This document shows positions 22,899 to 26,598 of a DNA stretch of 64,000 nucleotides, piece by piece. Within the stretch, counting starts at the first letter, position 1, and every line of letters begins with the position of its first letter. The position numbers and the translations under genes are program-made. The notes beneath the pieces were generated by a model that was given only the letters and a program-made list of their open reading frames with translations, had not been told where the DNA came from and made no database searches. Source of the DNA: Candidatus Peribacteria bacterium (lineage in GTDB: Bacteria; Patescibacteriota; Gracilibacteria; Peribacterales; Peribacteraceae); assembly GCA_023038255.1 (NCBI GenBank), contig CP082927.1, positions 1,068,146 through 1,132,145 of the forward strand, read 5' to 3'.

Positions 22899-23985
22899 GT
22901 GGAAGAACTCCTTTTGAAGCTTCAGGAACTGCAGTCTGCAGTGAACATGGGAAAGGACTCTCTTTGAGGCCCGGAATGTGCCTGCACAGATAGCCGAACT
23001 GGAAGCGAAATCAACCGCGTCCGATATTTGGGATGACCAGCAGAAAGCGAACGAGCTTTTTGCAAAACTCCGCGGACTCAAGAAGCAGTGGGACCCTGTG
23101 GCAGCTCTGAAGAGTGATGTTGATGGTTTGGTGGAGATGACGCAGATCAGTTCTCTGGATGACCTGCCGGCATTACAGACCGAATATGATAAGGCGATAA
23201 AAGAATGGGCGATCCTGGAACCGATGCTCTATCTCTCCGGTGAGTTCGATCACAACAACTGCTACATCACTATCAGCGGCGGAGCAGGAGGAACCGAGGC
23301 GCAGGACTGGGCGGGATTTCTGATGCGCATGTACCTGCGTTACTGCGAGCGCATGGAATGGACGACGTCGATTGTTGATAAAACAGATGGACAGGAAGCG
23401 GGCATCAAAACTGTCACGATTTTTGTGGAAGGCGATCCGGCATACGGATATCTGAAGTGCGAGAAGGGCACACACCGCCTCGTGCGCCTCTCCCCTTTCA
23501 ACGCAAAAAGCCTGCGCCAGACAAGCTTCGCACTCGTCGAAGTGCTTCCGGAAATTACGGAGACAAATGAGATTGTTATCAATGCGAGCGATCTGCGCGT
23601 CGACACCTACCGCTCCAGCGGAGCCGGCGGTCAGCACGTGAACAAAACTGATAGCGCCATCCGCCTGACACATCTCCCGACAAATATTGTCGTAGCAGTT
23701 CAAACTGAGCGCAGCCAGATCCAGAACCGCGAGCGCGCGATGAACCTGCTCAAAGCAAAACTCCTCGAAAAAAAGCGCGCGGAAGAACTCGAGCAAAAAC
23801 AGGAACTGAAAGGCGCATCACAGAGTGCATCATTCGGGCAGCAGATCCGCAGCTATGTTCTGCATCCGTACCAGATGGTGAAAGATCTGCGTACTGACGC
23901 CGAAACCAGTAACACACAAGGAGTACTTGATGGCGATATTCAGATGTTTATTGATGCAGAATTAAAGAGATTGGCTAAGCAGTAA
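22899..23985 (+). CDS. prfB: Peptide chain release factor 2 with programmed +1 frameshift
   Basis: RF2 ends translation at TGA and TAA. The zero frame starts at GTG 22899 and reaches TGA at 22965-22967 after 22 codons. The preceding codon is CTT, giving the classic CTTTGA slippery site, and an AAGGA lies 4 nt upstream of it. A +1 shift continues as EARNVPAQIAELEAK and runs to the TAA at 23983. The body has the RF2 anticodon-like SPF motif in RLSPFNAKSLRQTSF and the GGQ in SSGAGGQHVNKTDSA. Because RF2 reads the TGA itself, the gene autoregulates. Reading only from 22978 would miss the true N-terminus. Confidence 0.96.
22962..22967 (+). promoter_or_regulatory. RF2 frameshift site
   Basis: CTT TGA in the zero frame of prfB, followed in the +1 frame by GAG GCC. 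The upstream AAGGA at 22953-22957 resembles the internal stimulator seen in other prfB genes, spaced one base further than in E. coli. Confidence 0.93.
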
Positions 23986-24324: not shown

Positions 24325-24415
24325 GGAGAGGTGGCCGAGTGGTCGAAGGCGCACGACTCGAAATCGTGTAGGCCTCAAAAGGGTCTCGAGAGTTCGAATC
24401 TCTCCCTCTCCGCCA
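24325..24415 (+). tRNA. tRNA-Ser (anticodon CGA)
   Basis: The acceptor stem GGAGAGG (24325-24331) pairs with CCTCTCC (24405-24411), followed by discriminator G and an encoded CCA. The anticodon stem CACGA/TCGTG encloses loop CTCGAAA with anticodon CGA at 24359-24361, reading UCG. A long variable arm (GGCCTCAAAAGGGTCTC region) is typical of serine tRNAs. The T arm is GAGAG-TTCGAAT-CTCTC. Confidence 0.97.
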
Positions 24416-24792
24416 GCCTTCGCCAAGGCTTCGGCTGGCCTCCGGCCAGACTCTTTTCCGAAAGCTATTTGTACATCAAACTGAACAAAATCACCCTTTC
24501 ATCAATAGAAAACACATCCAATAACACCATAAAGAAAGAAATCTCACTACATGGACCGGTGTGTTTTTTGGGAGGATTTTTCCTGCGGATGTTTGGTGGG
24601 CTGTATTTCTCTTCATACAGCCAAAAAAGTGCACACAAACACGGGTATCGTAAAAGATGACCCCACGACAAATTGTAGCGTCGTCCATTGAACATTTCAG
24701 TGCTATTCCTACGTGAAATTCAAATTCTCGCTTGCATAATGCACTCTAGGGTGAATAGAATTCACCTCGCATTATTTCTTTCCTCTTTTTTT
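24416..24792. other. Intergenic region upstream of the histone-fold gene
   Basis: It starts with short GC-rich hairpins (CAGCC...GGCTG and GGCCTCCGGCC) that may end the tRNA transcript. The rest is AT-rich. Open frames here on both strands have no recognisable protein features. The only supported element is the promoter at 24732-24761. Confidence 0.6.
24732..24761 (+). promoter_or_regulatory. Promoter of the histone-fold gene
   Basis: TTGCAT at 24732-24737, 18-nt spacer, TAGAAT at 24756-24761. Unlike most genes here it leaves a ~25-nt AT-rich leader ending in a run of T before the ATG at 24793. Confidence 0.6.
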
Positions 24793-25152
24793 ATGAGTTA
24801 CGTTGTAGCTTCAAAAGTTAAAGAGCTGGTTAACGGCAAGGGCATGATGTCCTCCGGTGACCTCGCAGAACACCTCAGCAAGCACATTGAAATGTGGCTG
24901 GGTATGGGCGTCAAAGCTGCCCAGGCTAACGACCGCAAGACGGTTCGTGGTTCAGACATGCTCGCTTTCACGCCGGGCAAAATGGCCCTCATCGTGGCTA
25001 GCAAGGTTAAGGAATACATCAATGGCAAGAACATGATGTCTTCCGGCGATCTCGCTGAGCACGTGAGCGCTCTCGCTGAGTGGCTTCTTTCCGAGGCTAT
25101 CAAGCGCGCAGCAGCTAACGGCCGCAAGACCGTTCGTGGCGAAGATCTCTAA
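24793..25152 (+). CDS. Tandem double histone-fold protein
   Basis: A 119-residue protein made of two end-to-end copies of one domain: residues 4-56 and 67-119, joined by LAFTPGKMAL. By hand alignment about 34 of 53 positions are identical. Each copy has three predicted helices and ends with the RKTVRG(S/E)D motif, close to the RKTIKAED of archaeal histones. Each begins VASKVKE(L/Y)(V/I)NGK, like short bacterial histones. One chain would thus form its own histone pseudodimer and bind DNA or organise the nucleoid. It has its own promoter and terminator, so it is a single-gene, probably well expressed unit. The histone assignment is by motif; DNA binding is inferred. Confidence 0.82.
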   Translation: MSYVVASKVKELVNGKGMMSSGDLAEHLSKHIEMWLGMGVKAAQANDRKTVRGSDMLAFTPGKMALIVASKVKEYINGKNMMSSGDLAEHVSALAEWLLSEAIKRAAANGRKTVRGEDL

Positions 25153-25175
25153 GCGATCTTTTTCTCGGAATTGAT

Positions 25176-25205
25176 AAAAGCCTTCTGTAACGGGGAGGCT
25201 TTTTT
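25176..25205 (+). terminator. Intrinsic terminator of the histone-fold gene
   Basis: Stem AAAAGCCT (25176-25183) with AGGCTTTT (25196-25203), 12-nt loop, followed by more T. It lies 23 nt after the stop codon. Confidence 0.85.
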
Positions 25206-25290: not shown

Positions 25291-26598
25291 ATGACCATCG
25301 CGGTAATTGGCACCGGCTACGTAGGACTCGTGTCTGCGGCATGCTTCGCAGAACTCGGACACACGGTGTATGGCATTGATATTGATGCCGCCAAAGTTGC
25401 AATGCTGCGCGACGGCAAAAGCCCGATCTACGAACCCGGACTGGAAGAACTCATCAAGCAGGGCCTCGCAAACGGACGCCTGATATTTGAAACAGATATC
25501 ACACTCGCACTCCCACATGCAGAAGTGGTGTTCTCCGCAGTGGCCACTCCCCCGGGCGAAGGATTCAAAGCGGACCTGCGTGCGGTCTTTGCTGTTGCAG
25601 AAACAATCGCGCAGAAAGTGGATCACCCGATTGTGTTTGTGAATAAATCGACAGTACCGGTGGGGACCGGCGAGCTGTGTGAGGAGAAGATCAATGCAAT
25701 CCTGAAAGAGCGCGGTATTACCTGGAGTATTCCTGTTGTGAGCAATCCTGAATTTTTACGTGAGGGAATGGCGGTGCCGGATACGATGATGCCTGAACGC
25801 ATTGTCGTGGGAATCAATGGTGATACGCGCGCAAAAGAACTGATGGAAGAGCTGTATCGCCCCATCACCAGAGCCAATAAGCCGATCATTTTCATGAAGA
25901 GAGAGAGCGCGGAAATTGTGAAGTACGCAAGCAACGCCTTCCTCGCAACGAAGATCAGCTTCATCAATATGCTCACGGAGCTGACGGAAAAAACCGGCGG
26001 CAATATCCGCGATGTCGCAACGGGCATGGGCCTCGACAGCCGCATTGGTCCACGCTTTTTGCATGCGGGTATCGGCTACGGCGGCAGCTGCTTTCCGAAA
26101 GATGTAAAAGCACTGCTCGCCACCGGAAAAGAGTACGGCATCCCGATGCCGATTGTGGAAGCGACCGATGCCGTGAACCAGCATCAGCGCGAACGCTTCA
26201 TTGCAAAGATTGTGTCGATGCTCCCGGCGCAGTCGAAAGTCGCCATCTGGGGACTCAGTTTCAAACCGAAGACCGACGACATGCGCGAAGCGCCGAGTAT
26301 TGATGTCATCAATGCACTCATCAGCGCCGGACATACGGTAAGCGCTTTTGATCCCGTTGCCACCGAGCGCGCCAAGCCGCTGCTGCCATTCATTACCCAC
26401 TACGCCGATACCTCGATGGATGCGGTCATGGAAGCTGACGCACTCGTGGTTTTGACCGAGTGGGACGAATTCCGCGGCACAGACCTGAAGCTCACCAAAG
26501 AACACATGAAGGGCAATCTCCTGTTTGACGGTCGCAATATTTATGAACCACGCGAGGTCACAGAGGCCGGGTTCATCTACCATGGAATTGGCCTTTAA
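25291..26598 (+). CDS. ugd: UDP-glucose 6-dehydrogenase
   Basis: Oxidises UDP-glucose to UDP-glucuronate with two NAD+. The 435 residues start with the Rossmann motif IAVIGTGYVGLVSAACFAELGH. FVNKSTVPVGTG, NPEFLREGMAVPD, the central helix region VKYASNAFLATKISFINML, and IGYGGSCFPKDVKAL (catalytic Cys near residue 268) follow. A C-terminal UDP-binding domain has FKPKTDDMREAPS. It would feed the UDP-glucuronate 4-epimerase at 27024. The 3' end overlaps the convergent 26595 gene by 4 nt. Confidence 0.96.
   Translation: MTIAVIGTGYVGLVSAACFAELGHTVYGIDIDAAKVAMLRDGKSPIYEPGLEELIKQGLANGRLIFETDITLALPHAEVVFSAVATPPGEGFKADLRAVFAVAETIAQKVDHPIVFVNKSTVPVGTGELCEEKINAILKERGITWSIPVVSNPEFLREGMAVPDTMMPERIVVGINGDTRAKELMEELYRPITRANKPIIFMKRESAEIVKYASNAFLATKISFINMLTELTEKTGGNIRDVATGMGLDSRIGPRFLHAGIGYGGSCFPKDVKALLATGKEYGIPMPIVEATDAVNQHQRERFIAKIVSMLPAQSKVAIWGLSFKPKTDDMREAPSIDVINALISAGHTVSAFDPVATERAKPLLPFITHYADTSMDAVMEADALVVLTEWDEFRGTDLKLTKEHMKGNLLFDGRNIYEPREVTEAGFIYHGIGL

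What the first reader, a model, noticed from the sequence alone, without database searches (positions are those of the whole stretch)
24732..25205. Single-gene unit for a tandem double histone-fold protein
The 119-residue product is two near-identical histone-like domains in one chain (about 34 of 53 positions identical by hand alignment), each ending in RKTVRG(S/E)D. Histone doublets are known in some archaea, and bacterial DUF1931-type pseudodimers exist. Here the high similarity of the halves, including at DNA level, suggests a recent or homogenised duplication of a short bacterial histone. Own promoter and terminator imply independent, probably strong expression. A CPR-like bacterium that packages DNA with a covalent histone dimer would be notable.
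Basis: partly seen in the sequence, partly recalled or inferred. Interest (0 to 1): 0.85.

Follow-up and report, generated by a model that had tools for sequence, protein, structure and literature searches.

The report
Two-in-one DNA-packing histone of bacteria
A tiny-genome CPR bacterium (Peribacteraceae) encodes a short histone whose two halves are fused into one chain; its relatives keep the single version at the same chromosomal spot, so this is a covalent histone dimer that still has its DNA-contact residues, unlike the bacterial double histones known so far.

Summary
In detail: window 24793-25152 encodes a 119-aa protein made of two histone folds, 34/52 residues identical. AlphaFold2 (pLDDT 93.5, pTM 0.84) gives a histone pseudodimer. 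Each half superposes on the bacterial histone HLp (0.7-0.9 Å), the N half also on HBb (1.2 Å).

The genome is from Peribacteraceae (CPR). 68 of 74 genomes of that family carry a histone, nearly always a 56-aa singlet. Only three genera, plus one mis-binned contig, carry the doublet. The nearest singlets sit at the same prfB/ugd locus, so the doublet arose in place. A second doublet, in another family of the class, faces a singlet at its own syntenic locus and probably arose separately.

Both halves keep the α3-histone DNA-contact residues, unlike the DUF1931 pseudodimers reported to lack them. All 51 distinct singlets and every C half keep the face-to-face (FtF) triad R/N/R. The N half lost its Arg (R42A) in 4/4 Peribacteraceae doublets.

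Most likely an abundant nucleoid protein that bends DNA as a covalent dimer, alongside HU. Verdict: new variant of a known kind. DNA binding and assembly are inferred, not shown.

The parts
24732..24761 (+). promoter: -35 TTGCAT, 18-nt spacer, -10 TAGAAT
   Evidence: same arrangement in 28 of 29 homologous loci at near-fixed distance to the ATG; shuffles mean 0.46, max 3
24762..24792 (+). short pyrimidine-rich 5' leader without a Shine-Dalgarno motif (last 20 nt 95% C+T)
   Evidence: 75-95% C+T and no SD motif in all 23 histone genes examined
24793..25152 (+). CDS of the 119-aa double histone (P0001), pI 9.4, 12.8 kDa
24793..24957 (+). N-terminal histone fold (residues 1-55; helices 6-15, 24-45, 53-56); FtF Arg replaced by Ala42
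   Evidence: AlphaFold2; residue table
24958..24990 (+). linker, residues 56-66 (MLAFTPGKMAL), running on from the short helix alpha3
   Evidence: no helix after residue 56 until 69 in the model; conserved L.F.PGK in three doublets
24991..25149 (+). C-terminal histone fold (residues 67-119; helices 69-78, 87-108, short alpha3 116-118); FtF triad R105/N109/R111 intact
25176..25203 (+). intrinsic-terminator-like hairpin followed by a T run
   Evidence: 11 pairs, loop 6, T6
22978..23985 (+). prfB (release factor 2), conserved upstream neighbour of the histone gene in the family
   Evidence: Pfam PCRF and RF-1; synteny
24325..24415 (+). tRNA-Ser(CGA) between prfB and the histone gene
   Evidence: ARAGORN and Rfam
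25291..26598 (+). UDP-glucose 6-dehydrogenase, downstream neighbour shared with the doublet and sister-singlet loci
   Evidence: Pfam; synteny

Best explanation
This is a covalent dimer ('doublet') of a short alpha3-type bacterial histone, made by in-place tandem duplication and fusion of the 56-aa singlet that is the standard histone of Peribacteraceae. The chain folds on itself into one histone handshake. It presents the two L1-L2 loop sites and the two alpha1 sites of an ordinary histone dimer, and binds DNA without sequence preference, bending it by tens of degrees as HBb does. It is made in quantity from its own conserved promoter and works next to HU as a nucleoid protein. Fusion makes the two halves unequal. 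The C half ends freely at Asp-Leu and keeps the Arg/Asn/Arg triad that in HLp joins dimers face to face. The N half continues into the linker and has lost the triad Arg. I therefore expect at most one-sided (C half) pairing between doublets, instead of the closed HLp-type ring. Shown here: sequence, homology, synteny, promoter, residue conservation, predicted fold, codon bias. Inferred: DNA binding and bending, abundance. Speculative (about 0.35): the one-sided pairing.
For: Fold: AF2 pLDDT 93.5, pTM 0.84; the whole chain superposes on single-chain H2A-H2B (Z 9.5, 2.7 A over 116), the M. kandleri doublet 1f1e (Z 8.6, 2.8 A over 117) and Thermus 1wwi (Z 7.7); the halves superpose on HLp (N half 0.7 A over 56, C half 0.9 A over 57) and the N half on HBb (1.2 A over 58). 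DNA-contact residues (HBb S9, K10, K12, K52, T53; HLp R59) align to S7 K8 K10 K49 T50 R52 and S70 K71 K73 K112 T113 R115, kept in both halves of all five doublets except one Lys to Ala in the mis-binned contig (residues from PMC11317129 and PMC12701072). Histone in 68/74 family genomes, HU in 67/74, one histone gene per genome with one partial second match. In-place duplication: singlet G029 lies at the same prfB-histone-ugd locus, and the doublet clade (96/94) nests with singlets G029/G079 (99/99). Purifying selection: dN/dS about 0.06 (N) and 0.11 (C) between window and G001. Expression: codon adaptation 0.728, above all 61 window genes. FtF triad R/N/R in 51/51 distinct singlets and 4/4 Peribacteraceae C halves; Ala in 4/4 N halves.
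Against: There is no biochemical, transcript or proteome evidence. The net charge is modest (17 K+R against 13 D+E). HU is also present, so the histone need not be the main nucleoid protein. The independent G038 doublet keeps the FtF Arg in both halves, so loss of the N-half Arg is not a necessary result of fusion. Oligomers could not be modelled here. Tree resolution is limited by 52 columns.
Confidence: 0.77

Rival explanations
1. It works like HLp: two doublets pair face to face through both faces, making the same closed four-fold particle that wraps about 50-60 bp; fusion only fixes the dimer.
For: Best sequence and structure match is HLp; the C half keeps the whole FtF triad and the N half keeps Asn46 and Arg48; G038 keeps both triads.
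Against: The FtF Arg is Ala in the N half of 4/4 Peribacteraceae doublets while 51/51 distinct singlets keep it, and the free C-terminus that takes part in the HLp interface is replaced by the linker in the N half.
Confidence: 0.25
2. It is a DUF1931-like pseudodimer that no longer binds DNA and serves another role.
For: Same overall architecture of two folds in one chain; 1wwi and 1r4v superpose (Z 7.7 and 6.1); weak PF09123 hit (E 0.076).
Against: DUF1931 proteins are reported to lack the DNA-binding signature residues (PMC12701072), whereas both halves here keep them under purifying selection; the halves descend from alpha3 singlets at the same locus.
Confidence: 0.06
3. A regulatory or locus-specific DNA-bending protein of low abundance rather than a global chromatin component.
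For: HU is present in nearly every family genome (67/74), so general packaging could be left to HU.
Against: Near-universal, single-copy, conserved promoter and codon usage in the ribosomal-protein range.
Confidence: 0.13
4. Assembly or annotation artefact (collapsed tandem repeat or wrongly joined genes).
For: The doublet is rare (3 of 74 family genomes).
Against: Independent doublets in G001, G018, contig JACRJW010000068 and G038, each diverged by 20% or more, in intact frames; halves differ at 18 of 52 residues.
Confidence: 0.01

Closest known systems
HLp of Leptospira perolatii (face-to-face alpha3 histone, PDB 9QT0-9QT2; PMC12701072)
   Same: Best PDB sequence hit (3.2e-8); 0.7 A over 56 residues; short alpha2, vestigial alpha3; FtF triad R/N/R present in the C half and in all 51 distinct family singlets
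   Different: HLp is a 63-aa singlet forming homotetramers; here two folds are fused and the N half lacks the FtF Arg
HBb / Bd0055 of Bdellovibrio (bacterial-dimer alpha3 histone, PDB 8FVX, 8CMP; PMC11317129, PMC10627809)
   Same: Fold (1.2 A over 58), RKTV..D motif and alpha1 DNA-contact residues; lack of the FtF Arg resembles the N half
   Different: HBb is a 2-chain homodimer; ours is one chain, with L2 Arg at the HLp R59 position rather than HBb R57
DUF1931 pseudodimers (Thermus 1WWI, Aquifex AQ328 1R4V; PF09123)
   Same: Bacterial, two histone folds in one chain, pseudodimer
   Different: Reported to lack DNA-binding residues and cluster apart; ours has them twice, hits PF09123 only below threshold, and derives from alpha3 singlets
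Archaeal doublets (M. kandleri HMk 1F1E; Haloferax HstA)
   Same: One-chain handshake, Z 8.6, 2.8 A over 117 residues (1F1E)
   Different: Those are longer, nucleosomal-type and, in the 2026 archaeal survey, acidic (median 143 aa, pI 4.7; PMC13260811); ours is 119 aa, pI 9.4
Giant-virus H2B-H2A doublets (Melbournevirus)
   Same: Two folds fused in one chain; superpose on the model (7n8n Z 8.5, 9cvt Z 8.2)
   Different: Core-histone type with tails, forming nucleosome-like particles; no sequence kinship found

Membership tests
Histone fold superfamily (PF00808) | three-helix fold with long alpha2 and a significant profile hit | tested here: met
   PF00808 E 6.5e-7 over cut-off; AF2 helices 6-15/24-45/53-56 and 69-78/87-108/116-118
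alpha3 histones (Schwab et al. 2024) | alpha2 shortened and alpha3 reduced to 3-4 residues | tested here: met
   alpha3 is residues 53-56 and 116-118 in the model; alpha2 22 residues; definition in PMC11390915
alpha3 histones (Schwab et al. 2024) | RKTxxxD motif and alpha1 lysines | tested here: met
   both halves
FtF (face-to-face) subfamily | conserved Arg/Asn/Arg triad at HLp R49, N53, R55 | tested here: not met
   met in the C half and in 51/51 distinct singlets; not met in the N half (Ala42) of 4/4 Peribacteraceae doublets
FtF (face-to-face) subfamily | tetramer through two interfaces, DNA wrapping | not testable with these tools
   no multimer modelling available
Bacterial-dimer subfamily (HBb type) | lacks FtF R48/N52 | tested here: not met
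   Asn kept in both halves, Arg kept in the C half
DUF1931 pseudodimers | profile PF09123 above cut-off | tested here: not met
   E 0.076, 13.7 bits against cut-off 21.8
DUF1931 pseudodimers | absence of DNA-binding signature residues | tested here: not met
   residues present in both halves
Double histone fold (architecture class) | two histone folds in one chain forming an intramolecular pseudodimer | tested here: met
   predicted only: full-length superposition on 1f1e and single-chain H2A-H2B

The most novel reading that the evidence does not exclude
This would be the first bacterial histone doublet that binds DNA: an alpha3/FtF histone fused in place, separately in two families of one CPR class. 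The fusion would let the two halves specialise, with one face of the dimer-dimer contact deleted, giving a one-sided assembly and a DNA architecture (an open pair or chain of bends) different from both HBb bending and HLp wrapping. This would parallel the symmetry breaking proposed for eukaryotic histone heterodimers.
Probability: 0.33. Interest if true: 0.8.

Novelty: new variant of a known kind. Interest (0 to 1): 0.6.

Why it matters
In the papers that could be read, bacterial double histones are DUF1931-type and lack DNA-binding residues, while DNA-binding bacterial histones are singlets. This protein joins the two properties, and its singlet ancestor survives at the same locus in sister genera. 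That gives a natural before-and-after experiment on how histone doublets arise and how fusion lets the two halves diverge, a question usually asked only of eukaryotic and viral histones. It also shows a near-universal 56-aa histone in a whole CPR family, in genomes of about 1.2 Mb, which a six-frame Pfam PF00808 scan of this genome missed.

Tried and rejected
Recent or homogenised duplication: rejected for this genome. N-N identity between genera is 41-44/52 against 34/52 between halves; third positions 24/52; dS saturated. In G001 and G018 the within-gene dS is lower (about 0.4), so some homogenisation there is not excluded, but 52 codons are few.

One origin for all doublets: not favoured. 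G038 halves match each other at 36/52 and the others at 23-27/52, and G050 of the same family has a singlet at the syntenic locus. The AU test on 52 columns does not formally reject a single clade (p 0.24).

Horizontal gain of the doublet from Uhrbacteria, Rokubacteria or an archaeon: those contigs (L080, L089, L120) read as mis-binned Peribacteraceae (L089 by its identical protein only).

Phage or plasmid origin: no match in IMG/VR, phage or plasmid collections.

DUF7463 (PF24262) and FeoC hits: below cut-off, taken as chance.

The CATAAT promoter reported by the generic scan: replaced by the conserved TTGCAT-18-TAGAAT.

Papers on histones in CPR or Peregrinibacteria: none found in the library. 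Supplementary tables of the bacterial histone surveys could not be read, so a listing of these sequences there is possible.

Full report
1. The observation. Window 24793-25152 (+) encodes a 119-residue protein. Cut at VASK...RKTVRxxD, its halves are identical at 34 of 52 positions without gaps. Pfam finds PF00808 at E 6.5e-7, above the curated cut-off. The best solved relatives by sequence are HLp of Leptospira perolatii (9QT0, 3.2e-8) and HBb/Bd0055 of Bdellovibrio (about 4e-6). A profile of five doublets strengthens these to 6e-13 and about 1e-10. A conserved promoter and a terminator-like hairpin flank the gene.

2. Where it lives. The genome is one contig of 1.24 Mb, 99% complete. Named relatives at the same loci are Candidatus Peribacteraceae / Peregrinibacteria, CPR bacteria. 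Of 74 family genomes, 68 have a histone with the doublet profile (70 class-wide hits minus two from another family), and 67 have HU. The window genome has one of each. In the rest of the class sampled only two genomes of one other family have it. Singlets also occur in a few other families of the phylum.

3. Singlets and doublets. Nearly all family members are 56-aa singlets starting MSYVVAS and ending at RKTVRxxDL. Doublets occur in three genera (G000, G001, G018), plus contig JACRJW010000068. That contig is labelled Uhrbacteria but carries Peribacteraceae neighbours at 70-75% DNA identity. A fifth doublet, G038, belongs to another family of the class.

4. How it arose. Most singlets examined lie beside prfB. 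The closest singlets to the doublet, G029 and G079, lie exactly between prfB and ugd, as the window doublet does (ugd linkage in G001 and G018). In a tree of halves the eight Peribacteraceae halves form one clade (96/94) inside the singlets with G029/G079 as closest kin (99/99), and the N halves form a clade (99/98); holding the C halves together is not rejected. This fits one duplication in place before the three genera split. G038's halves match each other best, and G050 of its own family has a singlet at the syntenic locus, which points to a second event; the AU test is not decisive (p 0.24).

5. Structure. AlphaFold2 on 28 rows gave pLDDT 93.5 and pTM 0.84, with two copies of short helix, long helix, vestigial alpha3. 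The whole chain superposes on single-chain H2A-H2B (Z 9.5, 2.7 A, 116 residues), on the M. kandleri doublet (Z 8.6, 2.8 A, 117) and on the DUF1931 protein 1WWI (Z 7.7); half-chains fit HLp at 0.7-0.9 A and HBb at 1.2 A. Z values near 8-9 are moderate for helical folds, so the sequence match carries more weight. The G038 doublet gives the same architecture (pLDDT 87.8).

6. Function from residues. DNA-contact residues known from HBb and HLp are kept in both halves: S7, K8, K10, K49, T50, R52 and S70, K71, K73, K112, T113, R115; the only loss is one Lys to Ala in the mis-binned contig. DUF1931 pseudodimers are reported to lack such residues (PMC12701072; PMC13088155). HLp joins dimers face to face with R49, N53 and R55. 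The matching R42/N46/R48 is invariant in 51/51 distinct family singlets and present in every C half; in the N half of all four Peribacteraceae doublets R42 is Ala. The N half also loses the free C-terminus that the HLp interface uses, since it runs into the linker. Both changes hit the same face, hence the proposal of one-sided pairing. This step is speculative; G038 keeps Arg in both halves.

7. Expression. The promoter TTGCAT-18-TAGAAT at 24732-24761 is matched in 28 of 29 homologues at 30-35 nt from the ATG. The leader is pyrimidine-rich and lacks a Shine-Dalgarno motif. Codon adaptation against a ribosomal-protein region is 0.728, above all 61 window genes (highest 0.710); with a stricter 12-gene reference it is 0.708, inside the ribosomal range 0.66-0.82, with HU at 0.769. 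Both halves are under purifying selection.

8. Membership. It is an alpha3 histone by fold, motif and descent. It is not a clean member of either alpha3 subfamily tested (FtF triad not met in the N half; Arg and Asn kept where bacterial-dimer histones lack them), and not a DUF1931 protein. It works like a histone dimer in one chain. I call it a new variant of a known kind.

9. Limits. No multimer modelling, no expression data, no access to survey supplements; the named-genome scan used only two peptide patterns, so doublets elsewhere may have been missed.

Noticed in passing
window 22899-22985: The prfB reading frame begins upstream (GTG at about 22899) and runs TCT CTT TGA G into the annotated frame: the classical release-factor-2 +1 programmed frameshift site, in a CPR genome that uses TGA as stop.
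   Followed up: partly
window, all genes of 150 aa or more: Few genes have a Shine-Dalgarno-like motif (19 of 55 at any candidate start), while a -10-like TANNNT lies at -22 to -10 of the first ATG in 29 of 54 (shuffles mean 10, max 17), most often at -12. This suggests many leaderless transcripts.
   Followed up: partly
window 24762-24792 and homologues: Histone genes of the family share a 30-35 nt leader, 75-95% pyrimidine with C runs and no Shine-Dalgarno motif, which suggests an unusual mode of translation start.
   Followed up: partly
window 24749-24767: A palindrome (GGTGAATAGAATTCACC) overlaps the -10 box of the histone promoter in the window genome; not seen in the upstream sequences of the relatives. 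Possible operator or leader hairpin.
   Followed up: no
L080 (JACRJW010000068), L120 (MGBT01000147), L089 (NYYK01000002): Contigs deposited as Uhrbacteria, Rokubacteria and Euryarchaeota carry Peribacteraceae-type histones and look mis-binned; L080 also has Peribacteraceae neighbour genes.
   Followed up: partly
G000 (own genome): A six-frame scan with PF00808 does not report this gene although the protein itself passes the cut-off, so Pfam-based genome screens may undercount these short histones.
   Followed up: no
G028 (one contig, 98% complete): No histone match, although four congeners have one: possible true loss and a natural knock-out.
   Followed up: no
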